Positions 6,131-30,629 of a stretch of DNA of 33,014 nt are shown here, in pieces. Made by a program: the position numbers and the translations under genes. Origin of the DNA: Comamonadaceae bacterium (lineage in GTDB: Bacteria > Pseudomonadota > Gammaproteobacteria > Burkholderiales > Burkholderiaceae_C); NCBI GenBank assembly GCA_014190675.1, contig BJGT01000027.1, positions 1 to 33,014 on the forward strand, written 5' to 3'. Within the stretch, counting starts at the first letter, position 1; each line of letters opens with the position of its first letter. The notes under the pieces are model-generated. The model did not search any database and was not told the DNA's origin. It worked only from the letters and a program-made list of their open reading frames with translations.

Positions 6131-7489
6131 TCAGCTCGGCCCAACCGGCCTGGCGCTTGCGCTACGCGCAATCACGGTGCGCTCTACCACCCGGTCATCG
6201 CCCAAAACAATCAGGGCGAACAGCAGTTCGTCCAGGTTGGCAGCGCGGGCGGTGCGCCGGGCCAGCAGCGGGGTGGCCTGGGTATTGAGCAGAACAAAGT
6301 CGGCCTCGCAGCCGGGCAGCAAATTACCCACTGCTGGCCGCCCACTGCGGCCGTCCAAACCAAGGGCCTGCGCAGCCCCGGCCGTGTGTTGCCACCACAG
6401 GTGCTGCGGTGTCAGCGACAGCCCGGCCTTGCCCCGCCCATCGCGGCCTACAACATAGGCGCCGAGCATGGTGTGAAACGGGCTCAGCGAGGTTCCTCCG
6501 CCGACATCGCTGGCCAAGCCGTAGCGAAAACCGGCCTGCTCTGCGCTGGCGTAATCAAAAAAACCACTGCCCAAAAACAAGTTGCTGGTGGGGCACAGAG
6601 CGGCGGCGGCGCCAGTGGCGTGCATGAGCGCCCGGTCCTCGGCGTCAAAGTGAATGCAATGGGCATAGACGGCACGTTCGCGCATCAGGCCAAAGTCAGC
6701 ATAGGTGGACAGGTAGCTGCGCGACTGCGGAAAAAGCGACCTGACCCAGGCGATCTCATCATGGTTTTCTGCCACATGGGACTGGATCCAGGCCTGCGGG
6801 TAGCGGGCCGCGAGTTCACCAGCACCGCGCAGCTGCGCGGCGCTGGAGGTGGGCGCAAAACGCGGCGTGATGGCATAACCCAGCCGACCCACGCCCTGCC
6901 ACTGCAGCAGCAGGGTTTCAGAATCGATCAGGCTTTGCTCGGTGGCGTCGGTACCAGCCGGTCCGTCCCGGTTCAGCAAAGCCGCCGGCGCATGGCGGTC
7001 CATCAGGCACAGGCCGGTGATCAGCCGCATGTCCCGCTGCTGCGCCGCCGCAAACAGGGCCTGCACCGAGGCCGGGTGCGAGGTGGCAAAGGCCAGCGCT
7101 GTGGTAACGCCGTGGCGCAGCAGCTCGTCGAGAAAAAACTCCGCCTCGGCTGCGCTGTAGGCGGGTGACTCGAAGCGCTGCTCTTCAGGGAAGGTGTGGT
7201 TTTCTAGCCAGGGCAGCAGGCCATCGGCGGGCGAGCCGATCACATTGAGCTGCGGAAAATGCACATGCATGTCGATAAAACCGGGGGCAATCAGACGGCC
7301 TGGCAGATGCTCCACAGCCAGGCCAGGATAGCGCGGCGCCAGCGCTGCCCAGGCGCCCACGTCCTGCACCACCTCAGCACCGCTGGCATCGGGGCCCAGC
7401 ACCAGCAGGCCGTCGGCCTCATAGACAGCGGCCTGCCGCGGGTCTGCGGCCGGGTCAAAGCGCAGCAGGGCAGCGCGGTAGGCCTTCAT
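6131..7489 (-). CDS. guaD: Guanine deaminase
   Basis: Converts guanine to xanthine, the substrate of the XdhAB encoded nearby. The 452-residue protein is an amidohydrolase-superfamily metalloenzyme with PGFIDMHVHFPQ (zinc ligands H75 and H77), the ITPRFAP substrate-binding block (207-213), SHVAEN (H238, E241), YAHCIH (275-280, H277 and H280) and ASDVGGGTS with Asp328. Spacing and length match GuaD rather than dihydropyrimidinase or hydantoinase. The open frame extends to 7687, but that part overlaps the upstream deaminase gene. The ATG at 7489 is 13 bases after that gene's stop and fits the family. It is the last gene of a four-gene run (GST, Rieske, adenine deaminase, guaD). Confidence 0.94.
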   Translation of the reverse strand: MKAYRAALLRFDPAADPRQAAVYEADGLLVLGPDASGAEVVQDVGAWAALAPRYPGLAVEHLPGRLIAPGFIDMHVHFPQLNVIGSPADGLLPWLENHTFPEEQRFESPAYSAAEAEFFLDELLRHGVTTALAFATSHPASVQALFAAAQQRDMRLITGLCLMDRHAPAALLNRDGPAGTDATEQSLIDSETLLLQWQGVGRLGYAITPRFAPTSSAAQLRGAGELAARYPQAWIQSHVAENHDEIAWVRSLFPQSRSYLSTYADFGLMRERAVYAHCIHFDAEDRALMHATGAAAALCPTSNLFLGSGFFDYASAEQAGFRYGLASDVGGGTSLSPFHTMLGAYVVGRDGRGKAGLSLTPQHLWWQHTAGAAQALGLDGRSGRPAVGNLLPGCEADFVLLNTQATPLLARRTARAANLDELLFALIVLGDDRVVERTVIARSASARPVGPS

Positions 7490-7502
7490 GGCAGCATGTC
7501 GC

Positions 7503-8555
7503 TCAGGCAAAAGATTCAAACAAGGCATCCAGCCGCGCGACATGGGCGCTGCGCTCAGGGGCGCTGATAAAGCTCGCCTCAAAGCTGTTGCGCGCCAACT
7601 GATAGGCATGGACCGCCGAGAGCGGCAGGGCAGCAAAGGTCTGGCTGAAGTTCTCGTTGAGGTAGCCACCAAAGTAGGCTGGGTCATCCGAATTAACCGT
7701 GGCCACGATGCCGGCTTCCAGCATGCGGTGCAGGCTGTGCTGCGCCAAGCTGGGGTAGACGCAGAGCTTGAGGTTGGAGAGCGGACACACCGTGAGCGGT
7801 ATGCGGTCTAGCGCCAGGCGCTGCATCAGGGCCGCATCATGGATGGCCTGCACACCATGGTCAACGCGCTCGACCTTGAGCACATCCAGCGCGCTCCAGA
7901 TATAAGCCGGCGGGCCCTCCTCGCCAGCATGCGCCACCAGCCGGAAGCCCAAGGCCCGCGCCCGGGCAAACACCCGGGCAAATTTTTCGGGCGGGTGGCC
8001 GACCTCGCTGGATGCCAGGCCGATGCCAAGAATGCTGTCCCGCAGGGGCAAGGCCTGCTCCAGGCACTCAAAGGCCTCGGCCTCGCTCAGGTGGCGCAAA
8101 AAGCAAAGAATCAACGAGGCAGTCATGCCAAAGCGGTCTGGCGCATCGGTGCAGGCCCGGTGCAGCCCCTTGATGACCACCTCGGCACTCAGGCCATGGC
8201 CGGTGTGGGTCTGGGTGTCAAAAAACAATTCAGCATGCAGCACGTTGTCAGCCTGGGCGCGAGCCAGGTAGGCGCAGGCCATGTCATAAAAATCTTGCTC
8301 GGTCTTGAGCACCAGAGTGCCAGCGTGGTAAATGTCAAGAAAGCTTTGCAGGTTGTCAAACACATAGGCGTCGCGCAAGGCCTGCACCGACCGGTAGGGC
8401 AAGGCCACCTTGTTGCGCTGGGCCATAGCAAAAATCAGCTCGGGCTCCAGCGATCCTTCGATGTGCATATGCAGTTCGGCCTTGGGCATGCGCTGCAGCA
8501 GCTCGGACAGGCATTGGGTCGGAATATGGTGAACGAATGACGGCAGGGTTTGCAT
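7503..8555 (-). CDS. Adenine deaminase of the adenosine-deaminase family
   Basis: Predicted to convert adenine to hypoxanthine. The 350-residue protein has the Add-family metal and catalytic motifs: KAELHMHIEG (H29, H31), VAHAGEEGPP (H209, E212), ERVDHG (H233) and VNSDDPAYFGGY (D290, D291). AHAGEEGPP and SDDPAYFGGY are hallmarks of the Aah1/Pseudomonas-type adenine deaminases. True adenosine deaminases usually carry a different sequence after the Asp pair. The match to my memory of the Pseudomonas aeruginosa adenine deaminase is close over the whole length. Automatic annotation would probably say 'adenosine deaminase'. The ATG overlaps the stop of the Rieske gene by one base (TGATG), which suggests translational coupling. 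The product feeds XdhAB. Confidence 0.88.
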   Translation of the reverse strand: MQTLPSFVHHIPTQCLSELLQRMPKAELHMHIEGSLEPELIFAMAQRNKVALPYRSVQALRDAYVFDNLQSFLDIYHAGTLVLKTEQDFYDMACAYLARAQADNVLHAELFFDTQTHTGHGLSAEVVIKGLHRACTDAPDRFGMTASLILCFLRHLSEAEAFECLEQALPLRDSILGIGLASSEVGHPPEKFARVFARARALGFRLVAHAGEEGPPAYIWSALDVLKVERVDHGVQAIHDAALMQRLALDRIPLTVCPLSNLKLCVYPSLAQHSLHRMLEAGIVATVNSDDPAYFGGYLNENFSQTFAALPLSAVHAYQLARNSFEASFISAPERSAHVARLDALFESFA

Positions 8556-9580
8556 CAGCTGACTCCAAAAGTAATGCCCAGTTGGCTCAAGTGGCGGCGG
8601 TAAGCCACCGAAGCCTTGTCGGCCGCCGTGTGCAGCTCGGCACGGGGCGCCAGCGGCAGGGTCTTGGGCAATTGCGACTCCAGCACCGGCTTGTCTTGCA
8701 TGAAGATGCTGTGCTGGAAGTCGCGCAGTGCGGCCGCATCGGGCGTCATATCAGCCACCGCCAGCCGGAACCAGACACGGCTGCTGCTGGGCGTGAGCGG
8801 GCAGACAAACAGGGCGATCGATTCGCGAAACGCTGGCAGCGACACGCTGTGTGCAGGCGCTACCTTGCACAGCACTGCAGTAAAAGGCGCAATGACTTCG
8901 TAGTTGTAATCAATTTGCGCGGCCGCAGTGGCGTGCACGCTGGAGCGAGGTTGCCAGGCGCGGCAGCCGGTGGCGCGCAGGCCCTGCAGCGTGGTTTCAA
9001 CCTGGTAGGGCGGGATTTCGGTAGCCTGGCCCATGACGCCCTCGGGCAGCTGGCGCATGCCCAGCCAGCCCTCGTGCACAAAGCCAAAATGCGCCATGTC
9101 CAAAAAGTTTTCCACAATCCGCCCGGCACTGGTGGCCACCTCGTAGGGGCCGCAGTTGAGCTTGTACAACTGGGCGTCGGCCTCTGCCTCAAAGACCGGC
9201 AAGGCCCGCCCTGAGGCCGGTCCGGCGGCGTCCAGACAAACCCAGATGAGCCCGCCCTGTTCGCAGGCCGCAAACACCTGGGCCCGATGCGAGGTCGGCG
9301 GCGTGAAGGCCGGCAGGGCCGGCACCTGCACACACTGGCCCGAAGCATCGAACTGCCAACCGTGGTAGGGGCAGGTCAGACGACCTTCGCACACTCGCCC
9401 CAAGGAGAGACGAGCCCCGCGGTGCGGGCACTGGTCAGCCCAGGCCTGGATGGCCCCGCTGGTGTCGCGCCACAGCACCAGCGGCTGCGCCAGCAGCACA
9501 GCCGCCACCGGTTGCGGCCCCACCTCATCGGCACCAGCCACCGGGTGCCAATGCTGGTGTTCGATCGGGCTCAGGGCCAC
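8555..9580 (-). CDS. Rieske non-haem iron oxygenase, alpha subunit (purine-locus)
   Basis: A 341-residue aromatic-ring-hydroxylating/O- or N-demethylating oxygenase. The Rieske [2Fe-2S] ligands are CPH (C51, H53) and CPYH (C70, H73). The mononuclear iron site is ENFLDMAHFGFVH, with D161, H164 and H169, and a likely third carboxylate ligand in MQDKPVLE (D296). The size and short C-terminus resemble the vanillate/caffeine demethylase and HpxD-like group, not large biphenyl-type dioxygenases. No ferredoxin or reductase is encoded nearby, so electrons must come from elsewhere. The GTG at 9580 starts 13 bases after the GST stop; the longer open frame runs into the GST gene. It sits inside a purine operon between a GST and adenine deaminase, which suggests a purine or methylpurine substrate. 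That is inference; an unrelated aromatic substrate is possible. Confidence 0.9.
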   Translation of the reverse strand: MALSPIEHQHWHPVAGADEVGPQPVAAVLLAQPLVLWRDTSGAIQAWADQCPHRGARLSLGRVCEGRLTCPYHGWQFDASGQCVQVPALPAFTPPTSHRAQVFAACEQGGLIWVCLDAAGPASGRALPVFEAEADAQLYKLNCGPYEVATSAGRIVENFLDMAHFGFVHEGWLGMRQLPEGVMGQATEIPPYQVETTLQGLRATGCRAWQPRSSVHATAAAQIDYNYEVIAPFTAVLCKVAPAHSVSLPAFRESIALFVCPLTPSSSRVWFRLAVADMTPDAAALRDFQHSIFMQDKPVLESQLPKTLPLAPRAELHTAADKASVAYRRHLSQLGITFGVS

Positions 9581-9593
9581 CCCACCCGCTCGC

Positions 9594-10238
9594 TCAGAAC
9601 CAGGGCGCCTGCAGCGCCTCGGCGCCAAACACCCGCTGCACAGCGGGCCGCTCAAAAACACGTTGCAGCCAGGGGCCGATGTGGGGCAGGTCGCGCGCTT
9701 TGGGCCCGGCGAAATTGCGGGTCCAGCGGCACACCATCATGGCGTGGATGTCGGGCAGGCTGTAGGTCTGGCCCAGCAGCCAGGGGCCTACTTGGGTGGC
9801 CAATTGGGTGTCGATCTGCTGCACCAGCGTCATCACCCGTTGCTCGGCGTGGGCCTTGACCTGGGCAACGGCCTCTGCGCTGTCGGCCCAGCGCTCGGGG
9901 TAAAAGTAGATGTTGGTGGCCGGTTGCAAGGTGCCGGCGAGCCAGGCCATCCATTTGTAGGCCTGGGCCCGCTCAGCCGTGCCAAGCGCCGGCATCAAGC
10001 CTCCGGCCGGGTGGCTATCGGCCAGGTGCAGGCAGATTGCCGCTGACTCGTAAAGCACCAGGTCGCCATCAACCAGCACCGGCACCAGCCCGTTCGGGTT
10101 GAGCTGGCGGTAGGCCGGCGAGCCGAGTTGGCCCCCCGCCTTATCCACCTTGAGCAAGGTGTGGCCGCAGCCGAGTTCTTCGAGCACGATGTGCGGCGCC
10201 ATGCTGGCAGCACCGGGCAGGTAATGGAGTTGGATCAT
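9594..10238 (-). CDS. Glutathione S-transferase family protein
   Basis: A 214-residue protein with an N-terminal thioredoxin-like GST domain (about 1-80; the cis-proline region NPNGLVPVL and the glutathione-binding ESAAI motif are clear) and a helical C-terminal domain. No signal peptide. It is the first gene of the GST-Rieske-adenine deaminase-guaD run and ends 13 bases before the Rieske start. In caffeine-degrading Pseudomonas putida CBB5 the GST-like NdmE forms a complex with the Rieske N7-demethylase NdmC and reductase NdmD. Pairing of a GST with a Rieske oxygenase in a purine operon makes a structural-partner role plausible. Two starts are possible: ATG 10238 (MIQLHYLP, the usual GST N-terminus, chosen) or ATG 10274. 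Neither has a clear ribosome site. Confidence 0.85.
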   Translation of the reverse strand: MIQLHYLPGAASMAPHIVLEELGCGHTLLKVDKAGGQLGSPAYRQLNPNGLVPVLVDGDLVLYESAAICLHLADSHPAGGLMPALGTAERAQAYKWMAWLAGTLQPATNIYFYPERWADSAEAVAQVKAHAEQRVMTLVQQIDTQLATQVGPWLLGQTYSLPDIHAMMVCRWTRNFAGPKARDLPHIGPWLQRVFERPAVQRVFGAEALQAPWF

Positions 10239-10331: not shown

Positions 10332-10356
10332 AAAAAGGGCCGCTCAAGAGCGGCCC
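10332..10356 (-). terminator. Intrinsic terminator after the BMP lipoprotein gene
   Basis: The minus strand reads GGGCCGCT-CTTG-AGCGGCCC followed by TTTTT: an eight-base-pair GC-rich stem, a four-base loop and a U-tract. It lies 17 bases after the stop of the binding-protein gene and separates the importer operon from the GST operon. Confidence 0.85.
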
Positions 10357-10373
10357 CAAGGAATCTCTAGCAG

Positions 10374-11525
10374 TTACTTACCGCCGGGGATCTTGCCTTC
10401 CACGCCTTTGACGTAAAAATCCAGGCCACCGAGGAACTTGTCGTCGGCTGCCGCATCCTTGGCGATCTGCACTTTGCCTTTGTTGTCGGTGATCGGGCCT
10501 TTCCAGATGACATAAGTGCCATCAGCCAGGCCTTTTTTCACGTCTGCCACTTTGGTCTTGATGTCGGCGGGCACATCTTCAGCAATAGAGACGATGTCAA
10601 TGGCGCCTTCTTTCACGCCCCACCACACGCCAGTGCCACCCTTCCAGGACCCGTCAAGCGCCTCTTTGGTGGCCTTGCTGTAGTACGGGCCCCAGTTGAT
10701 CACGGCAGATGCCAGGTGGGCCTTGGGGCCGTAGGCGGTCATGTCGGAATCCCAACCAAAAGCGCGTTTGCCCTTGGCTTCTGCAGCCTTGAGCACGGCG
10801 GGCGAGTCGGTGTTCTGAAACAGCACGTCAGCGCCGCCGTTCATCAGCGAGGTGGCGGCTTCGGTTTCTTTCGGTGGGTCGAACCAGCCGTTCACCCACA
10901 CCACTTTGGTCTTGACCTTGGGGTTGACCGACTGGGCGCCCAAAGTGAAGCTGTTGATGTTGCGGATCACCTCAGGAATTGGGATCGAAGCCACCACGCC
11001 CAGCGTGTTGGACTTGGTCATTTTGCCGGCGATGATGCCGGCCATGTACGCGCCTTCATAGGTGCGGCTGTCGTAGGTGCGCATGTTGTCAGCCTGCTTG
11101 AAGCCGGTGGCGTGCTCGAACTTGACGTCCTTGAAATCAGGCGCGATCTTGAGCATGGGCTCCATATAGCCAAAGGTGGTGCCGAAGATCAGCTTGTTGC
11201 CTTGGGTGGCCATGTCGCGGATCACGCGCTCGGCGTCTGCGGACTCGGGCACGTTTTCAGCAAAGGATGTCTTGATCTTGTCGCCAAACTCTTTTTCCAG
11301 GGCCTTGCGCGCGTTGTCATGGGCGAAGGTCCAGCCGCCATCGCCGACCGGGCCAACGTAAGCAAAGGCGATTTTCAGCGGCTCGGGTGCGGGCGCCGAA
11401 GCGGCAGCAGCGGGTGCTGCAGCAGGCGCCGGCGGCGCCTCTTTTTTGCCGCAGCCCACCAGCGCAGCGGAGGCTACGGCGGTGAGTGCTGCGATCTTGA
11501 ACGTCAGCTTGTGCAGATCGGTCAT
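10374..11525 (-). CDS. BMP-family nucleoside ABC transporter substrate-binding lipoprotein
   Basis: The periplasmic binding component of a BmpA/PnrA/NupN-type nucleoside importer. The 383-residue precursor has a lipoprotein signal with lipobox LVGC (Cys25), then an Ala/Pro-rich linker (about 30-50), then the BMP domain starting at LKIAFAYVGPVGDGGWT. GTTFGYMEP, YEGAYMAGIIAG and FGWDSDM are typical BMP blocks. The ATG at 11525 is chosen over the upstream ATG at 11576 because AAGGA lies six bases before it and the signal peptide begins there. It is the last gene of the importer run, 67 bases after the second permease gene, and is followed by an intrinsic terminator. Substrates are inferred to be purine nucleosides or bases from the neighbouring catabolic genes. 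Confidence 0.93.
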   Translation of the reverse strand: MTDLHKLTFKIAALTAVASAALVGCGKKEAPPAPAAAPAAAASAPAPEPLKIAFAYVGPVGDGGWTFAHDNARKALEKEFGDKIKTSFAENVPESADAERVIRDMATQGNKLIFGTTFGYMEPMLKIAPDFKDVKFEHATGFKQADNMRTYDSRTYEGAYMAGIIAGKMTKSNTLGVVASIPIPEVIRNINSFTLGAQSVNPKVKTKVVWVNGWFDPPKETEAATSLMNGGADVLFQNTDSPAVLKAAEAKGKRAFGWDSDMTAYGPKAHLASAVINWGPYYSKATKEALDGSWKGGTGVWWGVKEGAIDIVSIAEDVPADIKTKVADVKKGLADGTYVIWKGPITDNKGKVQIAKDAAADDKFLGGLDFYVKGVEGKIPGGK

Positions 11526-11592: not shown

Positions 11593-12513
11593 TCAGGCGC
11601 CCGGGTAAAACGGCTTGCCAATCGAGGCTGGCATGTTGATGCGGATCCATTGCGGATTGCGCGAAATGAGCGCCAGCACGACGATGGTGGCCAGGTAAGG
11701 CAGCATGGTCAGAAACTGGCTGGGCACCTCAACCCCATCGCCCTGCAGGTGAAACTGCAGCATGGTGACGCCGCCAAACAGGTAGGCGCCCAGCAGCACC
11801 CGCGCCGGGCGCCAGGTGGCAAAGGTGGTCAGGGCCAGGGCGATCCAGCCCTTGCCGGCGACCATACCCTCCACCCACAGCGGGGTGTAGACAATCGAAA
11901 TATAGGCACCAGACAGGCCACACAGGGCGCCACCCGCCACCACGGCCAACAGCCGGATACGCCGCACTGGGTAGCCCAGAGCGTGCGCCGACTCAGGGCT
12001 TTCGCCCACGCTGCGCAACACCAGGCCAGCGCGGGTGCGGTACAAAAACCAGATCAGGGCCAGCGCCAACAGCACGGTCAGGTAAACCAGGGGGTGCTGG
12101 CGGAACAGGGCGGGGCCAAGCAGAGGTATATCGGTGAGCCAGGGGACCTCAAACTGCAGGCGTTCGGGCATTTTTTGCTGAACGTAGCCCACGCCCACAA
12201 ACGCTGAAAAACCGGCGCCAAACAGGCTGGCCGCCAGGCCAGTGGCGTACTGGTTGGTGTTGAGCCAGATCACCAGTGCGCCAAAGATCAGCGCCAGCAG
12301 CGCCCCGGCGCCAATACCGGCGGCAAAACCAAGCAGGTCACTGCCCGTGTGCACCACGGCCGCAAAGCCGGCAATGGCGGCGCACAGCATCATGCCTTCT
12401 GCCCCCAAATTGACGATGCCAGCTTTTTCATTGATCAGCAGGCCCAGCGAGGCCAGGGCCAGCACCGTGCCGGCATTCAGCGTGGCGGCGATCAGGAGGG
12501 CATAGGATTCCAT
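11593..12513 (-). CDS. ABC transporter permease, nucleoside importer (NupQ-like)
   Basis: A 306-residue inner-membrane permease of the BPD_transp_2 family (as in NupQ of Bacillus subtilis and simple-sugar ABC systems). It is hydrophobic throughout, with roughly eight to ten membrane segments. The conserved cytoplasmic signature NEKAGIVNLGAEGMML lies at about 28-43, and the coupling-helix region ALGYPVRRIRLLAVVAGGALCGLSGA (split around 198-223) contacts the ATPase. The ATG at 12513 gives a normal N-terminal helix. It is 45 bases downstream of the first permease in the same direction, forming the usual ATPase-permease-permease-BMP order. Confidence 0.92.
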   Translation of the reverse strand: MESYALLIAATLNAGTVLALASLGLLINEKAGIVNLGAEGMMLCAAIAGFAAVVHTGSDLLGFAAGIGAGALLALIFGALVIWLNTNQYATGLAASLFGAGFSAFVGVGYVQQKMPERLQFEVPWLTDIPLLGPALFRQHPLVYLTVLLALALIWFLYRTRAGLVLRSVGESPESAHALGYPVRRIRLLAVVAGGALCGLSGAYISIVYTPLWVEGMVAGKGWIALALTTFATWRPARVLLGAYLFGGVTMLQFHLQGDGVEVPSQFLTMLPYLATIVVLALISRNPQWIRINMPASIGKPFYPGA

Positions 12514-12558: not shown

Positions 12559-13614
12559 TCATTTGGCCCACCGCATACGGTAATTGACAAGTGTGTCGCA
12601 AGCCAGCAGGGTGAACAGCAACAAGCCCTGGAACACGCCAGTGAGCGAACGCGGCATCCCCAGCCGCGACTGCGCCAGCTCACCGCCGATGTAGAACATG
12701 CTCATCAGCACCGCAGACAGCACCATGCCCACCGGGTGCAGCCGCCCAACATAGGCGACGATGATGGCAGCAAAACCGTAGCCGGCCGGCACATAGGGTG
12801 TGAGCTGGCCAATGGGGCCGGCCACCTCGAGCGCGCCAGCCAAGCCCGCCATGCCACCCGAGACAAGCAGCGCCGCCCACAGCGCACGGCGCGACGAAAA
12901 ACCAGCGTAGCGGGCGGCCGCCGGCGCCAGGCCGCCGACCTGCTGGGCAAAACCAGCACGCGTGCGGAACAAGAAGACCCAGACGCAAGCCACACCGGCC
13001 AGGGCGATAAAGATGCCAATGCTGACGCGAGAGCCTGCGAACAAACGCGGAATGCGGGTCGCGGCGTCAAAGGTGCGGCTCTGGGGGAAGTTGTAACCCT
13101 GCGGGTCTTTCCAGGGGCCCGAGACAATGAAACTGAGCAGCATCACCGCCACATACACCAGCATCAGGCTGACCAGGATTTCATTGGCGTTGAAGCGGTC
13201 GCGCAGCCAGGCCGTGATACCCGCCCAGAACATGCCGCCCAGGACGCCCGCCAAAAGGATCGGCAACACGATCCAGCTGCTGCTGCCCTTCTCAGCCATC
13301 AGTGCCACGCCACTGGCGGCAATCGCGCCCAGCACATATTGGCCTTCAGCGCCAATGTTCCAGACATTGGAGCGAAAACACACAGCCAGCCCCAGCGCGA
13401 TCAGCAGCAGCGGCGTGGCCTTGACGGTGAGCTCACCCAACCCGTAGGTGCTTTTGATCGGGTCCCAGAAAAATACCCGCAGTCCAGCCACCGGGTCTTT
13501 ACCCAGTGCCACAAACAGCAACACGCCAACCAGCACCGTGACCGCCAGCGCCAGAACCGGCGAGCCGTACGTCCACGCCGGGCTGGGTTGCGACCGGGCT
13601 TCAAGCTTGAGCAT
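12559..13614 (-). CDS. ABC transporter permease, nucleoside importer (NupP-like)
   Basis: A 351-residue integral membrane permease, the larger partner of the NupQ-like protein. The signature FRSNVWNIGAEGQYVLGA and the domain GFSSRRALWAALLVSGGMAGLAGA (split) identify the BPD_transp_2 family. The first about 25 residues are cytoplasmic and polar, followed by about ten membrane helices. The ATG at 13614 has a good ribosome site (GGGAGAGG) and lies 14 bases inside the 3' end of the ATPase gene, so the two are translationally coupled. An upstream ATG at 13638 would extend the overlap and is less likely. Confidence 0.92.
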   Translation of the reverse strand: MLKLEARSQPSPAWTYGSPVLALAVTVLVGVLLFVALGKDPVAGLRVFFWDPIKSTYGLGELTVKATPLLLIALGLAVCFRSNVWNIGAEGQYVLGAIAASGVALMAEKGSSSWIVLPILLAGVLGGMFWAGITAWLRDRFNANEILVSLMLVYVAVMLLSFIVSGPWKDPQGYNFPQSRTFDAATRIPRLFAGSRVSIGIFIALAGVACVWVFLFRTRAGFAQQVGGLAPAAARYAGFSSRRALWAALLVSGGMAGLAGALEVAGPIGQLTPYVPAGYGFAAIIVAYVGRLHPVGMVLSAVLMSMFYIGGELAQSRLGMPRSLTGVFQGLLLFTLLACDTLVNYRMRWAK

Positions 13615-15130
13615 GGGCCTCTCCCTGCCACAAGCCACTCATCCATTCGCCAATCTGCTCGACGGTGGCATCGGCTACTGCGATGGATGGCGACAGGCGA
13701 CCGCGCGCCATCACGTGCAGGCGGTCGCTCAGCTCGAACAGTTCGTCGAGCTCTTCGCTGACCACCAACACCGCGCAACCTGCGTCGCGCAGCGCCAGGA
13801 TTTCACCCCTGATCTGCGCGGCCGCACCCACATCGACACCCCAGGTGGGCTGTGACACGATGAAGAGGCGGGGGACAGCATCAATCTCGCGACCGACGAT
13901 GAACTTTTGCAAATTGCCACCTGAGAGCGAACGCGCCAACGCTCGGGGGCCGCCAGCTTTGACATTGAAGCGCGCAATGATGCCGGCCGCCTGTTGTTCC
14001 AGCGCCCGCACCCGAATCCAGCCTCCGCCCCAGCCGGGGTGGCTGATCGCCTCCTGCCGTGTCAATAGCAGGTTGTGCGCCAGGCCCAGTGTGGGCACCG
14101 CGCCGCGACCCAGTCGCTCTTCCGGCACGAAATGCAGACCCAGTTTGCGCCGGGCACCGGGATGCAAGGCGCCCGCATCCGTACCCGCGATGCGAATGGC
14201 ACCGGCGGCCGCCCGCATGTCTTCGCCTGACAAGGCATACAACAGCTCTTTTTGACCATTGCCAGACACGCCAGCCAGGCCCACCACCTCGCCGGCCCGC
14301 ACCTGCAGGTCCAGGCCAAGCAGGTCGACACCAAACTGGTCGGCTCGCGGCAGGCTCAAGCCCTGCACCTCAAGCACCGGTGCGCCGGGCTGTTGCGGCC
14401 GGTGGATCAGCTGCGGCGGCTCGGCGCCGATCATCAGCCGCGACAGCGAGGCGTTGGACTCTTCGCCCGGGTTACAGACCCCGGTGACACGGCCGCCGCG
14501 CAGCACCGTGCAGGCCGTACACAGTTCGCGAATCTCGTGCAACTTGTGGCTGATGTACAAAATGCTGCAGCCTTCAGAGGCCAGTTTTTTCAGCACCACA
14601 AACAGCTTTTCGACGGCTTGCGGTGTCAGCACCGAGGTCGGCTCGTCCAGGATCAGCAGTTCCGGGTTGGTGAGCAGGGCTCGGATGATCTCTACCCGCT
14701 GCATCTCGCCCACGCCAAGGGTGTGCACCGGCCGGGCAGGGTCAATGTCAAGACCATACTCGGCCGCTTTGCTGCTGATGCTGCGCGTGACATCGGCCAG
14801 GCTGAGGCTTTTGCTCAGGCCGAGCCAGACATTCTCTGCCACGGTGATGGTGTCAAACAGACTGAAATGCTGGAACACCATGCTGATGCCCAGCGCCCGT
14901 GCCTCCTGCGGGTTGCGGATGTGTACAGGCTGACCGTTGAACAAGACACTGCCGCTGTCCGGTTTGACCGAGCCGTAGATCACCTTCATCAGCGTCGACT
15001 TGCCGGCCCCGTTTTCACCCAGCACCGCATGGACCTGACCGGGCTGGACGATCAGATTGACGTCACTGTTGGCCACCACGCCAGAGTAGCTCTTGGTGAT
15101 GCCGGTTAATTGAAGGCGGGGGGTCGTCAT
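13601..15130 (-). CDS. ABC transporter ATP-binding protein, nucleoside importer (NupO-like, two ATPase domains)
   Basis: A 509-residue protein with tandem ABC domains, as in NupO/YufO and sugar importers of the CUT2 type. Domain 1 has Walker A GENGAGKST (38-46), signature LGVGEMQRV (138-146) and Walker B LLILDEPTS (158-166). Domain 2 has a degenerate Walker A (GVSGNGQKE, 287-295), an LSGGNLQK signature (402-409) and Walker B LFIVSQPTWGVDVG with Gln in place of the catalytic Glu, normal for the second site of this family. It energises the two permeases. It is divergent from xdhA, with about 167 bases between the starts, and a 28-codon open frame overlaps its ATG by four bases. Confidence 0.93.
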   Translation of the reverse strand: MTTPRLQLTGITKSYSGVVANSDVNLIVQPGQVHAVLGENGAGKSTLMKVIYGSVKPDSGSVLFNGQPVHIRNPQEARALGISMVFQHFSLFDTITVAENVWLGLSKSLSLADVTRSISSKAAEYGLDIDPARPVHTLGVGEMQRVEIIRALLTNPELLILDEPTSVLTPQAVEKLFVVLKKLASEGCSILYISHKLHEIRELCTACTVLRGGRVTGVCNPGEESNASLSRLMIGAEPPQLIHRPQQPGAPVLEVQGLSLPRADQFGVDLLGLDLQVRAGEVVGLAGVSGNGQKELLYALSGEDMRAAAGAIRIAGTDAGALHPGARRKLGLHFVPEERLGRGAVPTLGLAHNLLLTRQEAISHPGWGGGWIRVRALEQQAAGIIARFNVKAGGPRALARSLSGGNLQKFIVGREIDAVPRLFIVSQPTWGVDVGAAAQIRGEILALRDAGCAVLVVSEELDELFELSDRLHVMARGRLSPSIAVADATVEQIGEWMSGLWQGEAHAQA

Positions 15131-15297: not shown

Positions 15298-16764
15298 ATG
15301 ACCACCCGACCGCTTCAATTTGTCCGCCGAGGCCAGACCGTCACGCTGCATGACGTGCCGCCCGACCGCACGCTACTGGAGGTGCTGCGCGAGGACCTGC
15401 ATTGCACCGACACCAAAGAGGGCTGTAACGAGGGCGATTGCGGCGCCTGCACTGTGGTGCTGGGCGAGGCCAAGGGAGAGCGCCTGAAGTACCGCGCGGT
15501 AAACAGCTGCATCCGGCTGGCGCACTCTGTGCAGGGGCAAGCACTGTGGACCACGCAGGACCTGCTGGCGCCGGATGGCAGCCTGCACCCGGTGCAGCAG
15601 GCCATGGTGCAGTGCCATGGGAGCCAATGCGGCTTTTGCACACCCGGCTTTGTGATGAGCCTGTTTGGCATGTACCAGAACCATGTGGTGCCGGGCCGTT
15701 CAGTTACGCGGGCCTTGGCACAGCAGGATTTGTCAGGCAACCTGTGCCGCTGCACCGGCTACAGGCCCATTCTCGACGCGGCCCAGACCATGGCCGCACT
15801 GCCCCGCGTACAGGTGAACGAAACCGAATTGCTACAACGATTGAAGCAGATAAACCAAGCGGGACAGGGGCTGGAGGCCGATTCGGCTTATTTTTTGCCA
15901 AATACCCTATCTGAGCTGCTGCTGCTGCGCAGCAGCCACCCTGCAGCGCAACTGGTGGCCGGTTGCACCGACGTGGGGCTGTGGGTCAACAAGGGACACC
16001 GCCGCTTGCCAAAAGTGCTGGACTTGACCCGCGTGGCCGAGCTGCGCCGCGTGGAGGTCTACCCGCATCACCTGGCGATTGGCGCTGCGGTGCCGCTGAC
16101 CGAAGCATTTTCAGCATTGGTGGCCGACCGACCGCAACTGCAGGCCTTTGCCCTGCGTTTTGCCGGGTTGCCGGTACGCAACTCGGGCACCCTGGGCGGC
16201 AATGTGGCCAATGGCTCGCCGATTGGCGACTCAATGCCGCTCTTGATCGCACTGGGCGCCAACGTGGTGCTGATGAGCACACGCGGCCACCGCGATTTGC
16301 CGCTGGAGCGGCTTTACACCGGCTACCGGCAAAACCTGATGGCGCCCGACGAGGTGCTGGCCTGGATCAAGGTGCCCAAGGCGGTGCCGCAGGAATTCAG
16401 CCGGGTGTACAAAGTGTCCAAACGCTTTGACGACGACATCTCGGCCCTGTGCCTGGCCGTGGCGCTGCACCTGGAGGGCGGCCAGATCGTGCGGGCTTCG
16501 ATCGGGGTGGGCGGGGTGGCGGCCACCCCCGTGCGTGCCGGGCAAACCGAGGCGCTGCTGACTGGGAAGCCCTGGACCGAGGCCACGGTGCAGCGGGCCA
16601 TGCGGGTGCTGCGCCAGGAGTTCTCGCCCATCTCTGACCTGCGTGCCTCGAACGCTTACCGGGTGCAGGTGCTGGGCAATCTGCTGCAGCGCTTCTGGCT
16701 GGAGAGCCAGGGCGCGCGCGCCATCAACCTGGAGAGTGCCGGGCTTGAGGAGTTGCTGGCATGA
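15298..16764 (+). CDS. xdhA: Xanthine dehydrogenase small subunit (2Fe-2S / FAD)
   Basis: Electron-transfer subunit of the XdhAB enzyme that oxidises hypoxanthine to xanthine and then urate. The 488-residue protein has a plant-type [2Fe-2S] domain (C43, C48, C51, C71), a second helical [2Fe-2S] domain (C111 and C114 in CGFCTPG, C150 and C152 in CRC), a linker (about 165-200), an FAD-binding domain with LVAGCTDVGLWV and LGGNVANGSPIGDSMP, and a CO-dehydrogenase-flavoprotein C-terminal domain. The start follows a GAGGA ribosome site. The 4-base ATGA overlap with xdhB shows co-translation. Residues 178-198 in the linker use codons unlike the rest of the gene and resemble a patch in xdhB. Confidence 0.96.
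   Translation: MTTRPLQFVRRGQTVTLHDVPPDRTLLEVLREDLHCTDTKEGCNEGDCGACTVVLGEAKGERLKYRAVNSCIRLAHSVQGQALWTTQDLLAPDGSLHPVQQAMVQCHGSQCGFCTPGFVMSLFGMYQNHVVPGRSVTRALAQQDLSGNLCRCTGYRPILDAAQTMAALPRVQVNETELLQRLKQINQAGQGLEADSAYFLPNTLSELLLLRSSHPAAQLVAGCTDVGLWVNKGHRRLPKVLDLTRVAELRRVEVYPHHLAIGAAVPLTEAFSALVADRPQLQAFALRFAGLPVRNSGTLGGNVANGSPIGDSMPLLIALGANVVLMSTRGHRDLPLERLYTGYRQNLMAPDEVLAWIKVPKAVPQEFSRVYKVSKRFDDDISALCLAVALHLEGGQIVRASIGVGGVAATPVRAGQTEALLTGKPWTEATVQRAMRVLRQEFSPISDLRASNAYRVQVLGNLLQRFWLESQGARAINLESAGLEELLA
15831..15889 (+). repeat. Degenerate 59-bp repeat-like patch in the XdhA linker
   Basis: This 59-base stretch aligns without gaps to 17999-18057 in xdhB, with 33 of 59 identities by my count and 17 of the last 21. 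Both start at the third base of a codon and so are read in the same frame. Codons here (CTA, CAA, CGA, TTG, ATA, GGA) are unusual for this gene. It sits between the iron-sulfur and FAD domains. Chance similarity cannot be excluded. Confidence 0.35.
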
Positions 16765-19088
16765 GCACCAAGGCGAACCGGAGCGCGAGTGGAACATCCA
16801 CGCCGCATGAGAGCGCGGCCGCCCAGGTGGCGGGCGCCGCCACCTATGTTGACGACATCACAGAGCTGCGCGGCACGCTGTATGCGGCCCCCATCTTGTC
16901 GCCGCTGGCACATGGCACCCTGCGCGGGGTATCTGGCTCGGCGGCACTGGCGCTGGCCGGCGTGCGCGGCCTCGTACTGGCAGCGGACATTCCCGGCGAC
17001 CCGATGCTGGCCGCCTTTGCCGGCGACGAGCCGGTATTCGCACAAGGCAGGGTGCAGCACGTGGGCCAGGTGGTGGGGCTGGTGGTGGCCGACAGCGTGA
17101 TGCAGGCCCGCCGTGCAGCACGCCTGGTGCAACTGCAGATCGACGCCCTGCCCGCCGTGATGAGCGTGCGCGAGGCGCTGCAGCAAGAGCATTTCGTGCT
17201 GCCGCCGGTGTTTGTGCGCCGTGGCGACGCCGATGCCGCACTGGCCAGCGCGCCGCACCAGCTCAGCGGCACGCTGGAGGTGGGCGGCCAAGAGCACTTT
17301 TACCTCGAAGGCCAGGTGGCCTACGCCCTGCCGCAGGAGCAGGGGCAGTGGGTGATTCACAGCAGCACCCAGCACCCGGGCGAGGTGCAGCACTGGGTAG
17401 CCCACGCCCTGGGCCTCTCCAATAACGCGGTGCGGGTGGAATGCCGGCGCATGGGTGGCGGTTTTGGCGGCAAGGAGACCCAGGCTGGCCACATGGCGGT
17501 TTGGGCGGCGGTGGCTGCGCACAAGTTCAAATGCCCGGTCAAGCTGCGGCTGGACCGCGACGATGATTTTTTGATCACCGGCAAGCGCCATCCTATGGTC
17601 TGCGACTACACCGTGGGTTTTGACGACAGCGGGCGCTTGTGCGGCCTGCGCCTGATGATGGCCATGAACTGCGGCTTCAGCGCCGACCTGTCGGGCCCGG
17701 TGTCAGACCGCGCGATCTTCCACACCGACAACGCCTATTTTCTGGAAGACGTGGCCATTGCCTCTTACCGTTGCAAGCTCAACACCCAGAGCCACACCGC
17801 GTTTCGCGGCTTTGGCGGGCCCCAGGGCATGGTCGTGATCGAAGCCATCATGGGCGACATCGCCCGCCGGCTCGGGCTGGACCCTTTGGCCGTGCGCCAA
17901 CGCAACCTGTACGACGACACGCTGCAGGCCGATGGCCGCACACGGCGCGACACCACCCACTACGGCATGCGGGTCGAGGACAACATTCTGGCGCCACTGC
18001 TATCGAAACTAGAGCAAACTTCTCAATACCAGCAAAGGCGGGAGGCCATTTTGGCTTGGAACGCTGGCCAACCCGTCATCCGACGCGGACTGGCGATAAC
18101 GCCGGTCAAATTCGGCATTTCCTTCACTGCAACCCTGTTCAACCAGGCCGGCGCGCTGGTGCATGTGTACCTGGACGGCAGCGTGCAAGTGAACCACGGG
18201 GGCACAGAAATGGGCCAGGGTCTGCACACCAAGGTGGCGCAAATCGTGGCGGACGAACTTGGCGTGCCGCTGGCGCGAGTCATGGCCACCGCCAGCGACA
18301 CCAGCAAGATTCCCAACGCCTCGGCCACCGCTGCCTCGGCCGGCACCGACCTGAATGGCCGCGCGGCCCAGTTCGCGGCGCGCCATGTGCGCGACAACCT
18401 GGCGGCCTTTGTGGCCGGGCTTGACGGCTGCGGTGCTGGCGCAGTGCGCTTTGCCGGCGGCCTGGTGCACTCGCCCGGCGCCACCCGGCCATTTGACGAG
18501 GTGGTGCACCTGGCCTACGCCAACCGCATCCAGCTCTGGAGCGACGGTTTTTACCGCACCCCCAAGATCCACTACGACAAGACCACGCTGACCGGCCGGC
18601 CGTTTTATTACTTTGCCTACGGCGCCGCCTGCACCGAGGTCGCCATCGACACCCTCACCGGCGAAAACCGGGTGCTGCGGGTGGACATCCTGCACGACGT
18701 GGGCCGCTCCATCAACCCGGCGATTGACATCGGCCAGATCGAAGGCGGCTTTGTGCAGGGCATGGGCTGGCTCACCACCGAGCAGCTGGTGTGGGACGCC
18801 CGGGGCCGCCTGGCCACCCACGCGCCCAGCACCTACAAGATCCCTGCCACCGGCGACATACCGGCGCACTTGCACGTAGACCTGTGGCCCGAGCCGAACC
18901 GTGAGGACAATGTGTTTGGCAGCAAGGCCGTGGGTGAGCCGCCTTTCATGCTGGCCATCAGTGTGTTTGAGGCCCTGCGGGATGCGGTGGCACAAGCCCG
19001 AGGCGACGGCGCTGCGGTCAGGCTGCAGGCGCCGGCAACGGCCGAAGCCGTGCTGACAGCACTCAGCGCACCTGCCAACCCGCGCTAA
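16761..19088 (+). CDS. xdhB: Xanthine dehydrogenase large subunit (molybdopterin-binding)
   Basis: Catalytic molybdenum-cofactor subunit, 775 residues, the normal length for bacterial XdhB. Visible blocks are the N-terminal hammerhead-type domain with GRVQHVGQVVGLVVADS (split), the cofactor and substrate motifs GGGFGGKE and FRGFGGPQG, GTEMGQGLHTK, and the active-site VGEPPFML with the catalytic Glu at about 726. The first motif set identifies the XDH group rather than CO dehydrogenase or isoquinoline oxidoreductase. It overlaps xdhA by four bases. The usual third gene, xdhC (cofactor-sulfuration chaperone), does not follow, so maturation must rely on a copy elsewhere. Residues 413-433 are a codon-atypical patch resembling one in xdhA. 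The gene ends convergently with a decayed fragment on the other strand. Confidence 0.97.
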   Translation: MSTKANRSASGTSTPHESAAAQVAGAATYVDDITELRGTLYAAPILSPLAHGTLRGVSGSAALALAGVRGLVLAADIPGDPMLAAFAGDEPVFAQGRVQHVGQVVGLVVADSVMQARRAARLVQLQIDALPAVMSVREALQQEHFVLPPVFVRRGDADAALASAPHQLSGTLEVGGQEHFYLEGQVAYALPQEQGQWVIHSSTQHPGEVQHWVAHALGLSNNAVRVECRRMGGGFGGKETQAGHMAVWAAVAAHKFKCPVKLRLDRDDDFLITGKRHPMVCDYTVGFDDSGRLCGLRLMMAMNCGFSADLSGPVSDRAIFHTDNAYFLEDVAIASYRCKLNTQSHTAFRGFGGPQGMVVIEAIMGDIARRLGLDPLAVRQRNLYDDTLQADGRTRRDTTHYGMRVEDNILAPLLSKLEQTSQYQQRREAILAWNAGQPVIRRGLAITPVKFGISFTATLFNQAGALVHVYLDGSVQVNHGGTEMGQGLHTKVAQIVADELGVPLARVMATASDTSKIPNASATAASAGTDLNGRAAQFAARHVRDNLAAFVAGLDGCGAGAVRFAGGLVHSPGATRPFDEVVHLAYANRIQLWSDGFYRTPKIHYDKTTLTGRPFYYFAYGAACTEVAIDTLTGENRVLRVDILHDVGRSINPAIDIGQIEGGFVQGMGWLTTEQLVWDARGRLATHAPSTYKIPATGDIPAHLHVDLWPEPNREDNVFGSKAVGEPPFMLAISVFEALRDAVAQARGDGAAVRLQAPATAEAVLTALSAPANPR
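17999..18057 (+). repeat. Degenerate 59-bp repeat-like patch in XdhB
   Basis: Partner of 15831-15889 in xdhA. It encodes LLSKLEQTSQYQQRREAILA with codons rare in this gene (CTA, TCG, AAA, CTA, CAA, ACT, TCT, AGG). Nine of 21 residues match the XdhA patch at the same offset. Homologous XdhB proteins also have residues here, so a simple insertion is not proven. Confidence 0.35.
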
Positions 19089-19519: not shown

Positions 19520-19873
19520 ATGCGAACCACACTTGACCTCCCCGATGAAACCTTCCGCCAGCTCAAGTCGCAGGCAGCGCTCAGCGGCATGAAGCTCAAA
19601 GAACTGGTCACCCAGCTGATAGAGCGCGGCTTGGCGGCTGGTGTCACGACAAACCAACCAGCGCAGCAGTCCGGCCCGCAGTCCGTCGCGATCAAGCGGT
19701 TTGCAGCCACCCTGTCCACTACCGAACCAACCCCCGCCTACCCGATACCCATTGCGCGGGATGCGGATGGCACGGCCACGCCCTACCTCAATAACGCACA
19801 ACTCCATGCCATTCTGGAGGAAGAAGACTTGGCGCAGTACAAGCGTGTACGCAACGATGCAAGCGGTCAATGA
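19520..19873 (+). CDS. RHH-type antitoxin (VapB-like)
   Basis: A 117-residue protein whose N-terminus (MRTTLDLPDETFRQLKSQAA) is a ribbon-helix-helix DNA-binding motif, followed by ELVTQLIERGL. This is the pattern of VapB antitoxins that bind their own operator and neutralise VapC. The C-terminal half is polar and Pro/Thr-rich, with an acidic ILEEEDLAQY segment near the end as expected for a toxin-binding tail. The ATG overlaps nothing upstream, and a weak AAAGA stands in for a ribosome site. Its stop overlaps the toxin start by four bases (ATGA). Family assignment is by motif only; it is longer than most VapB proteins. Confidence 0.8.
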   Translation: MRTTLDLPDETFRQLKSQAALSGMKLKELVTQLIERGLAAGVTTNQPAQQSGPQSVAIKRFAATLSTTEPTPAYPIPIARDADGTATPYLNNAQLHAILEEEDLAQYKRVRNDASGQ

Positions 19874-20304
19874 ACGACCTGCCCGATATCAACGTTTGGC
19901 TGGCCTTGGTCGACAAGCGACACGTTCACCACGCAGCGGCCGCCCATTATTGGTTTGACACCTCGGTGCGAAGCCGCGCCTTTTGCCGCATCACCGCGAA
20001 TGGTTTTTTACGCCTGAGCAGCAACGCCAATGTGCTGCCAAATCCGCTTAGCCCGCATGAAGCCTGGATCACTTACCGACAATTTTTATTGCTGCCCATC
20101 ATTCGCTGGCTGCCTGAACCGCCAACACTTGATGACAGCTACTGTGCCTTGACCTGTGCCCCAGGATTTTTTCATCGCCTATGGACAGACGCCTACCTGG
20201 CCGCTTTTGCAATCAGCGGCCAATGCCGACTGGTTTCCTTTGATGGCGATTTCAATCGCTTTGCCGGGCTAGACTTTTTGCACTTGAGCGGGCCGCCGCC
20301 CTGA
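19870..20304 (+). CDS. VapC-family PIN-domain toxin
   Basis: A 144-residue predicted Mg-dependent ribonuclease toxin. The PIN-domain acids are visible: DINVWLALVD (Asp6) at the N-terminus, TDAYLAAFA with its Asp in the middle-to-late part, and LVSFDGDFNRF near the C-terminus. ITANGFLRLSSN occupies the place where many VapC proteins have a Glu or Gln, consistent with the TTHA0281-like VapC group. Length is normal and the frame is intact. It is translationally coupled to the upstream RHH antitoxin and convergent with the ParE-like gene, with about 50 bases between. Confidence 0.88.
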   Translation: MNDLPDINVWLALVDKRHVHHAAAAHYWFDTSVRSRAFCRITANGFLRLSSNANVLPNPLSPHEAWITYRQFLLLPIIRWLPEPPTLDDSYCALTCAPGFFHRLWTDAYLAAFAISGQCRLVSFDGDFNRFAGLDFLHLSGPPP

Positions 20305-26016: not shown

Positions 26017-26026
26017 GGCTCGGTCC

Positions 26027-27553: not shown

Positions 27554-27626
27554 GTCAATACCTCTGCGCGGCAAAGCGCTATTTTGGTCTTTAGCAAGGG
27601 CTGAGCCAGCCTCCCGCCCGGGCATC

Positions 27627-29021: not shown

Positions 29022-29033
29022 GTTGCGCCTGTG

Positions 29034-29597
29034 TTAACGATCGTCCATCGTGCTCTCGGGTTTCTCGAGCACGCAGAAACCACGCCGCCAATGCACCCGC
29101 AAAACCCAGAAGGAGCGCACAAACATGGCAGCAAAACCAGCCATGACCACCGAATAAACGATGTTCATGGGCAGGTCAATAACGGTCATTTTGTAGCTGC
29201 CGAGCTTTTGCATCATTTGCCAGCTCATCAACACAGCCAGACCAAAAAAAACAATGCGCATCAGATCGACAAAAAGGCCCAGCGCCCGGGTCAGTGGCTG
29301 GGGCATGAAGCGGTAAAAGAAGTCGACCTGGATGTGGTTATTTTTGGCCACACCGATCGCCGCCCCCACAAACACCGTGCCAATCAACAGGTAGCGGGCG
29401 ATTTCCTCGGTCCACGACGCTGAATTATTGAGCACATAGCGGGTGAAAAACTGGTAGAAAACGGTCAGGCCCAGCGCCCAGAACAGGCCCAGCGCCACCC
29501 ACGCCTCAACGGGCGTGTTGGAGAGGTCAACCTCTTCGTCGGTGGCGTGGAACTGGCCGTCATCGCCCATCACCTTGGGGCCGGCGTCAATGTCCAT
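29034..29597 (-). CDS. dctQ: TRAP transporter small permease (DctQ)
   Basis: A 187-residue membrane protein with four predicted helices after a polar N-terminal region of about 30 residues. FFTRYVLNNSASWTEEIARYL (split) is the DctQ signature, with the W-T/S-E-E motif between helices. It forms the membrane complex with DctM. Its ATG overlaps the dctP stop by one base (TGATG), indicating coupled translation. The polar N-terminus is a little longer than usual, and an internal start cannot be ruled out. Confidence 0.92.
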   Translation of the reverse strand: MDIDAGPKVMGDDGQFHATDEEVDLSNTPVEAWVALGLFWALGLTVFYQFFTRYVLNNSASWTEEIARYLLIGTVFVGAAIGVAKNNHIQVDFFYRFMPQPLTRALGLFVDLMRIVFFGLAVLMSWQMMQKLGSYKMTVIDLPMNIVYSVVMAGFAAMFVRSFWVLRVHWRRGFCVLEKPESTMDDR

Positions 29598-30583: not shown

Positions 30584-30629
30584 GCTTGTCTCCTTGGTTG
30601 GTGATGCTGACAGGGGAAAGTGATGGGTC

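What the first reader, a model, noticed from the sequence alone, without database searches (positions are those of the whole stretch)
6131..10238. Rieske oxygenase and GST embedded in a purine-deaminase operon
The minus-strand run GST - Rieske oxygenase - adenine deaminase - guanine deaminase has spacers of 13 bases, a one-base overlap and 13 bases, so it looks like one transcriptional unit, next to a nucleoside importer and xdhAB. Seen: intact Rieske ligands, mononuclear iron ligands and GST fold motifs. Known: in P. putida CBB5 the GST-like NdmE binds the Rieske N7-demethylase NdmC/NdmD; in Klebsiella, HpxD/HpxE is a Rieske system for hypoxanthine oxidation. Inferred: the pair oxidises or N-demethylates a purine (for example 7-methylguanine, a methyladenine or a methylxanthine) so that the deaminases and XdhAB can complete breakdown. 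The absence of a local reductase and the GST partner make it different from HpxDE. Purine demethylation coupled to deamination would be a new combination.
Basis: partly seen in the sequence, partly recalled or inferred. Interest (0 to 1): 0.75.

Follow-up and report, generated by a model that had tools for sequence, protein, structure and literature searches.

The report
Single-chain NdmC-like purine demethylase candidate
In many freshwater and soil bacteria an iron enzyme whose closest characterised relative strips a methyl group from caffeine-type purines sits beside the adenine- and guanine-breakdown genes, so it probably helps these cells feed on methylated purines such as those released from RNA.

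Summary
In detail: GST (9594-10238), Rieske oxygenase (8555-9580), adenine deaminase (7503-8555) and guanine deaminase (6131-7489) run on the minus strand with spacers of 13, -1 and 13 bases. A terminator-like hairpin separates them from the BMP importer genes.

The Rieske gene, not the GST, is the conserved partner: adenine deaminase lies directly downstream in 31 of 34 family-draw loci and 58 of 65 larger loci (the sets overlap). The GST is at the locus in 3 of 80 loci and is not NdmE-like.

On the shared catalytic domain the Rieske clade is sister to NdmC, the Rieske-less N7-demethylase (bootstrap 100; SH-aLRT 97). Grouping with HpxD or NdmA/B is rejected (p 7e-6, 1.5e-4). Two residues mark Comamonad plus NdmC proteins, and NdmC looks like the same chain with the cluster loops deleted.

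Best reading: an intact single-chain relative of NdmC that N-demethylates a methylpurine (7-methylguanine or 7-methylxanthine the leading guesses), feeding the deaminases and xanthine dehydrogenase. Reaction, substrate and electron donor are unproven.

The parts
9594..10238 (-). GST-fold protein, 214 aa, first gene of the unit; lineage-specific, probably a general GST
   Evidence: Pfam GST_N/GST_C over cut-off; at the Rieske locus in 3 of 80 loci and in L172; 10 of 11 further orthologues lie away from a Rieske gene
8555..9580 (-). Rieske non-heme iron oxygenase, single chain, 341 aa, GTG start; sister clade of NdmC
   Evidence: Pfam Rieske + VanA_C; trees; ligands and signature residues
7503..8555 (-). 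adenine deaminase of the Pa0148 type, overlapping the Rieske stop by one base
   Evidence: directly downstream in 31 of 34 loci
6131..7489 (-). guanine deaminase GuaD
   Evidence: TIGR02967, 446.7 bits against cut-off 375.4
10336..10357 (-). terminator-like hairpin between BMP gene and GST
   Evidence: 9 pairs, 7 G-C, T-run
10374..11525 (-). BMP/PnrA-type substrate-binding protein of the nucleoside-type ABC importer
   Evidence: Pfam Bmp 197 bits
11593..15130 (-). two permeases (11593-12513, 12559-13614) and ATPase (13601-15130) of the importer
   Evidence: Pfam BPD_transp_2 and ABC_tran; gene ends
15298..19088 (+). xdhA and xdhB, xanthine dehydrogenase subunits, divergent
   Evidence: TIGR02963 and TIGR02965 over cut-off

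Best explanation
The Rieske protein is an N-demethylase of a methylated purine, of the NdmC (N7) kind but with its own Rieske domain in one chain. It takes a methylpurine, hydroxylates the N-methyl carbon using O2 and electrons from a reductase encoded elsewhere, and releases formaldehyde plus the free purine. The neighbouring deaminases and XdhAB then carry the product to hypoxanthine or xanthine and on to urate. Leading substrate guess: 7-methylguanine from RNA, either demethylated to guanine and then deaminated by GuaD, or deaminated first to 7-methylxanthine, the known NdmC substrate, and then demethylated. A methyladenine feeding the adenine deaminase is the next guess. The GST is probably a bystander or a local add-on. 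Shown: family, ligands, phylogenetic place, gene order. Inferred: reaction, substrate, electron path.
For: Sister group of NdmC on the catalytic domain (UFBoot 100, 70 rows; SH-aLRT 96.9 under LG+C20, 55 of these rows); grouping with HpxD or NdmA/B rejected by AU test (p 6.85e-06 and 1.49e-04; run after the first tree was seen). C206 and Q295 in 22 of 22 Comamonad and 18 of 18 NdmC-clade rows, in 0 of 7 HpxD-clade and 0 of 6 NdmA/B rows. Gene order: adenine deaminase directly downstream in 31 of 34 loci, BMP gene directly upstream in 25 of 34. BMP genes also in 8 of 12 NdmC-type stretches and near the Leptolyngbya and Paraburkholderia relatives. The Niallia relative follows a xanthine/uracil-type permease and lies near a guanine deaminase over its cut-off. 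frmA or fghA homologues in 7 of 12 NdmC-type stretches, as expected for demethylation. NdmCDE turns 7-methylxanthine into xanthine (PMC4408171, passages). The own genome has a 67% glutathione-dependent formaldehyde dehydrogenase homologue and two transthyretin/HIU-hydrolase-family matches.
Against: No frmA or fghA match in the 80 Comamonad loci or the window. No reductase there either; the one HpxE-like reductase found in the genome is on contig C208 beside a frame that reads like an aldehyde dehydrogenase. (Six of 12 NdmC-type stretches also lack a match to HpxE.) Identity to NdmC is only 33% over 237 residues, and whole-chain BLAST scores HpxD higher (164 against 112 bits), because NdmC lacks the Rieske domain. 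The Rieske-domain tree does not place NdmD's domain beside the Comamonad clade specifically and moves Niallia to the HpxD side. The Mycetohabitans relative has direct neighbours (hydroxylase-like, aminotransferase, SidA-type) that do not look purine-related, though a purine nucleoside permease lies about 7 kb away. Tight coupling to the adenine rather than the guanine deaminase fits a methyladenine, or oxidation of hypoxanthine, as well as 7-methylguanine.
Confidence: 0.5

Rival explanations
1. It is a purine-ring hydroxylase that works like HpxD: it oxidises hypoxanthine (product of the adenine deaminase) or another unmethylated purine, as an oxygen-dependent route beside XdhAB.
For: Annotated HpxD scores above NdmA, NdmB and NdmC by whole-chain BLAST (34.8%); operon with purine deaminases; HpxDE is involved in oxidising hypoxanthine and xanthine according to PMC7373994 (passages); no formaldehyde genes nearby.
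Against: Separate clade (AU p 6.85e-06); G instead of N at 158 and E instead of Q at 295 in 7 of 7 HpxD-clade rows; XdhAB already present in the same cluster; no HpxE match in 80 loci or the window.
Confidence: 0.22
2. It is an N6-dealkylase that turns N6-methyladenine or a cytokinin into adenine, which the coupled deaminase then converts to hypoxanthine.
For: The most constant neighbour is the adenine deaminase (31 of 34), with the same one-base overlap in 24 of 65 loci by my start calls.
Against: The nearest characterised relative attacks a ring N7-methyl, not an exocyclic amine (PMC4408171, passages); none of the 10 papers listed for Rieske plus cytokinin plus bacteria plus adenine is on point by title and abstract start.
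Confidence: 0.13
3. It acts on a non-purine heterocycle that shares the importer, and its place in the operon reflects shared regulation only.
For: The closest solved relatives by sequence are SxtT and SxtDIOX (2.9e-48 and 8e-46), biosynthetic hydroxylases of guanidinium compounds (recalled); the Mycetohabitans relative has other direct neighbours.
Against: A BMP importer or purine genes recur beside relatives from three phyla.
Confidence: 0.13
4. GST and Rieske protein form an NdmCE-like complex.
For: GST-Rieske order kept in L008, L010, L011 and L172, with GST identity of 84-98%.
Against: 0 of 34 family-draw loci have a GST beside the Rieske gene; it is not NdmE-like; a chain with its own Rieske domain should not need the bridging role proposed for NdmE.
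Confidence: 0.07

Closest known systems
NdmC of the NdmCDE 7-methylxanthine N7-demethylase (Pseudomonas putida)
   Same: Catalytic domain is the sister clade; mononuclear ligands, C206 and Q295 shared; BMP genes in 8 of 12 NdmC-type stretches
   Different: NdmC has no Rieske cluster, uses the one on NdmD and needs NdmE (PMC4408171, passages); formaldehyde genes in 7 of 12 stretches. Here one chain carries both domains, with no NdmD, NdmE or formaldehyde gene found beside it.
HpxD/HpxE as annotated in Erwinia and Pantoea
   Same: Rieske oxygenase of similar length in a purine setting
   Different: Different clade; beside the Erwinia gene lie a VanB-type reductase, hpxO, uraH and uraD. In the 80 Comamonad loci none of these was found except one HpxO-like match (L084) and, at a looser limit, one UraH-like match (L073).
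NdmA and NdmB (N1- and N3-demethylases)
   Same: Single-chain Rieske purine demethylases, next-best solved relatives
   Different: Grouping rejected; E at 295 and a gap at 206
SxtT/SxtDIOX (best PDB matches by sequence)
   Same: Aligns over residues 36-367 of the longer reading frame
   Different: Biosynthetic hydroxylases (recalled), not purine enzymes; used only as a search hit

Membership tests
Rieske non-heme iron oxygenases | C-x-H and C-xx-H cluster ligands plus His, His, Asp iron ligands | tested here: met
   present and invariant in 31 of 31 rows
NdmC (N7-demethylase subunit) | Falls inside the NdmC clade | tested here: not met
   Sister to it, not inside
NdmC (N7-demethylase subunit) | Rieske cluster ligands absent | tested here: not met
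   Ligands present here; absent in 18 of 18 NdmC-clade rows
NdmC (N7-demethylase subunit) | Shared catalytic-domain residues C206, Q295 (my own criterion) | tested here: met
   22 of 22 and 18 of 18
NdmCDE complex | NdmD-type reductase and NdmE-type GST beside it | tested here: not met
   In 80 loci every NdmD match at 1e-15 (77) lies on the Rieske gene itself and NdmE has none; same for NdmD in the window; window GST is not NdmE-like
NdmCDE complex | 7-methylxanthine turned into xanthine | not testable with these tools
   needs an assay
HpxD | Groups with annotated HpxD | tested here: not met
   AU p 6.85e-06
HpxD | HpxE reductase adjacent | tested here: not met
   0 of 80 loci and not in the window
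NdmA/NdmB | Groups with NdmA/B | tested here: not met
   AU p 1.49e-04
VanA | VanA_C domain | tested here: met
   PF19112, 71.2 bits against 23.5; not specific to VanA (recalled)
VanA | Groups with characterised VanA | not tested
   No named VanA sequence was put in the tree
Adenine deaminase (Pa0148 type) | Nearest solved homologue is Pa0148 | tested here: met
   3ou8, E 1e-123; that 3ou8 is Pa0148, and its activity, are recalled

The most novel reading that the evidence does not exclude
Comamonadaceae carry a widespread, unrecognised route for eating RNA-derived N7-methylpurines (7-methylguanine). It is run by a single-chain oxygenase that represents the ancestral form of NdmC. The odd split NdmC plus NdmD-Rieske plus NdmE system of caffeine eaters arose from such a chain by deletion of the cluster loops and transfer of the Rieske domain to another protein.
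Probability: 0.27. Interest if true: 0.75.

Novelty: new variant of a known kind. Interest (0 to 1): 0.58.

Why it matters
7-Methylguanine and other methylated bases are released by RNA turnover (established knowledge). Among the papers listed by my searches (20 of 262, 20 of 72, 12 of 104; titles and abstract starts only, open-access library) none is about a bacterial enzyme that demethylates 7-methylguanine; that is not proof of absence. If the assignment holds, it names a candidate gene for that step in a common freshwater and soil family. [quoted passage not shown] It is testable with one purified protein.

Tried and rejected
HpxD membership: rejected by tree and residues. NdmE identity of the GST: rejected. 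A riboswitch or other Rfam family in the window: none at gathering scores; relatives were not scanned. A promoter in front of the GST: none by consensus scan. A first ORF clustering by longest frame contained many apparent antisense frames and was replaced by codon-model calls, which still missed genes, among others in L015, L046, L057, L150, L174 and L179. The Rieske-domain tree (54 of 57 rows, three short calls dropped) was too weak to show which intact clade gave rise to NdmD's Rieske domain. Literature for this operon, judged from titles and abstract starts of the rows listed: 0 papers; 1 of 1; 9 of 9; 20 of 24; 10 of 10; 20 of 262; 20 of 72; 12 of 104; 10 of 76; 12 of 36; no listed paper describes it. 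I read passages of three papers (PMC7373994, PMC4408171, PMC13237722) and none in full. Structure prediction failed once and was then switched off, so no pocket comparison was made. The tree used 55 of the 70 rows.
Full report
What is there. The domain matches are over their Pfam cut-offs; GuaD, XdhA, XdhB and the deaminase pass NCBIfam cut-offs. Upstream lie a BMP-type binding protein, two permeases and an ATPase, and divergently xdhAB. A hairpin of 9 pairs followed by a T-run at 10357-10336 (-) separates the BMP gene from the GST, so the four genes probably form their own unit. No consensus promoter was found there, and no Rfam family reaches its gathering score in the window.

Conserved partners. 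Codon-model gene calls found Prm1 in 59, the ATPase in 57, BMP in 68, the adenine deaminase in 66, GuaD in 43, XdhB in 33 and XdhA in 30 of 80; many loci are cut short and some genes were missed, so these are lower bounds. Where Rieske gene and deaminase were both called, the deaminase starts within 250 bases of the Rieske stop in 58 of 65, and in 24 of 65 with the same one-base overlap (starts chosen by the model). In 34 loci from evenly drawn family genomes, partly the same species, the deaminase is directly downstream in 31 of 34 and the BMP gene directly upstream in 25 of 34. In the 299-genome family draw 97 genomes match the Rieske protein at E 1e-30, 82 of them at E 1e-70; 78 of these 82 have the deaminase, against 158 of the other 217 (from; relatedness not corrected). 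Of three genus mates in that draw none has a Rieske match; two keep the deaminase (G121, G214) and one lacks it (G284). Stretches from G121, G214 and the family member G125 show the deaminase without the oxygenase. The oxygenase is thus an optional module of this purine cluster.

The GST. By tblastn the GST is at the locus in L008, L010 and L011 (3 of 80; L009 is cut at the Rieske gene) and in 0 of 34 family-draw loci. Of 11 further orthologues fetched, one (L172, 86%) is also followed by the Rieske gene and the deaminase; the other ten (50-66%) have no Rieske match in flanks of about 1.5 kb. The window GST matches NdmE over 98 residues at 26.5% only, whereas NdmC-type stretches carry GSTs that are 38-68% identical to NdmE in 12 of 12. 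The window GST is therefore not NdmE-like, and the proposed complex has little support.

Where the Rieske protein belongs. The best solved relatives by sequence are SxtT (2.9e-48), SxtDIOX (8e-46), NdmA (6.2e-36) and NdmB (4.6e-28). I took NdmA to NdmE from a P. putida plasmid and from Paraburkholderia caffeinilytica; these names rest on similarity and position, since the records carry product names only. HpxD came from an Erwinia plasmid, where it is annotated as such. On the catalytic domain, which all share, a 70-row tree makes the Comamonad Rieske clade sister to the NdmC clade with bootstrap 100, with the Leptolyngbya, Niallia, Paraburkholderia and Mycetohabitans proteins next, and the HpxD clade and NdmA/NdmB apart. 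A second model on 55 of these rows agrees (SH-aLRT 96.9). It rejects Comamonad plus HpxD (p 6.85e-06) and Comamonad plus NdmA/B (p 1.49e-04) (tests chosen after the first tree was seen). Roots are midpoint only. Whole-chain BLAST would rank HpxD (164 bits) above NdmC (112 bits), because NdmC lacks one domain.

Residues. C206 and Q295 (numbered from the GTG) are in 22 of 22 Comamonad rows and 18 of 18 NdmC-clade rows, and in 0 of 7 HpxD-clade (V and E) and 0 of 6 NdmA/B rows (gap and E); N158 is G in 7 of 7 HpxD-clade rows. Q295 is also in the Leptolyngbya-Niallia-Paraburkholderia-Mycetohabitans rows, C206 is not. Q289 aligns with N282 of NdmA, a substrate contact as far as I recall; it is Q in 22 of 22 Comamonad and 15 of 18 NdmC rows, but also in 3 of 6 NdmA/B rows, so it is not diagnostic.

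An intact relative of a split enzyme. The ten NdmC-clade rows printed begin with a W-containing strand like the window's WHPV, lack most of the cluster-bearing stretch, and resume before the catalytic domain; the four cluster ligands are absent in 18 of 18. Beside them lies either an NdmD-type reductase with an extra Rieske domain or a separate Rieske protein of about 200-250 residues; the separate ones match the window protein at 41.5-49.6%. In the Rieske-domain tree NdmD's domain and the separate Rieske proteins form one group (99) that joins Leptolyngbya (83), not the Comamonad clade specifically, and Niallia moves to the HpxD side. The fission idea is therefore plausible but not resolved.

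Function. NdmCDE converts 7-methylxanthine to xanthine; NdmC has no Rieske cluster, and the GST-like NdmE is required (PMC4408171, passages). PMC13237722 (passages) calls NdmE's role proposed and non-catalytic. Of 12 NdmC-type stretches, 8 carry a BMP gene, 7 carry frmA or fghA for formaldehyde, and 6 have a reductase match to HpxE; some of the 12 are close kin of each other. L159 adds an 8-oxoguanine deaminase over its cut-off, a xanthine dehydrogenase-like protein below its cut-offs and weak HIU/OHCU-type matches. The Niallia relative is near a guanine deaminase and next to a permease. Hence the best reading: demethylation of a methylpurine that feeds deaminases and XdhAB. 7-Methylguanine fits GuaD and the N7 preference of the sister clade; the one-base coupling to the adenine deaminase leaves a methyladenine open. 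Against it, the Comamonad loci and the window show no frmA, fghA or HpxE match (0 of 80). The own genome has one HpxE-like reductase on another contig and a 67% formaldehyde dehydrogenase homologue. PMC7373994 (passages) predicted that the dioxygenases under the xanthine riboswitch would prove to act on purines; the window has no such riboswitch.

Verdict. The gene run is real and its Rieske-deaminase core is conserved. The purine-demethylase inference gained support and became more specific (NdmC kind, single chain). The GST part of the inference fell. Substrate, reaction and electron donor remain untested, and the structure step could not be run.

Noticed in passing
L159:276-14484: Two NdmC-like genes, NdmD-like and NdmE-like genes, a BMP gene, an 8-oxoguanine deaminase, a xanthine dehydrogenase-like fusion and weak HIU/OHCU-type matches in one stretch: an NdmCDE-type system inside a purine catabolic cluster.
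   Followed up: partly
L165:7833-9647: One 604-residue frame matches both NdmC and the reductase part of NdmD, with a separate Rieske gene before it and an NdmE-like GST after it: a different split of the same parts.
   Followed up: no
L018, L024, L029, L031, L035, L039, L050, L064: A minus-strand pair, a phosphonate-type binding protein and a fatty-acid-desaturase-family protein, recurs downstream of the Rieske gene in these 8 loci, in none of which an adenine deaminase was called.
   Followed up: no
L119:4366-10017: In the cyanobacterium Leptolyngbya boryana a relative of the Rieske protein directly follows a complete BMP-type ABC importer, without deaminases in the stretch.
   Followed up: no
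L133 (G114): This Comamonad Rieske homologue (49%) failed my simple cluster-motif pattern; whether its cluster spacing is unusual was not looked into.
   Followed up: no
window 10203-10238 (-): The window GST and the 14 relatives aligned have no Cys in the first 12 residues, where beta-class GSTs such as E. coli GstA have their Cys10 (recalled).
   Followed up: no
window 19870-20304 (+): A 144-residue frame that looks like a PIN-domain toxin by eye; not searched.
   Followed up: no
window 24931-31352 (-): A run that reads by eye like a sugar-acid catabolic operon: dehydrogenase, UxaA-like dehydratase, TRAP transporter and GntR regulator; not searched.
   Followed up: no
L080: Record titled Pantoea sp. 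18069 has a typical Comamonadaceae version of this cluster; the title may be wrong or the assembly mixed.
   Followed up: no
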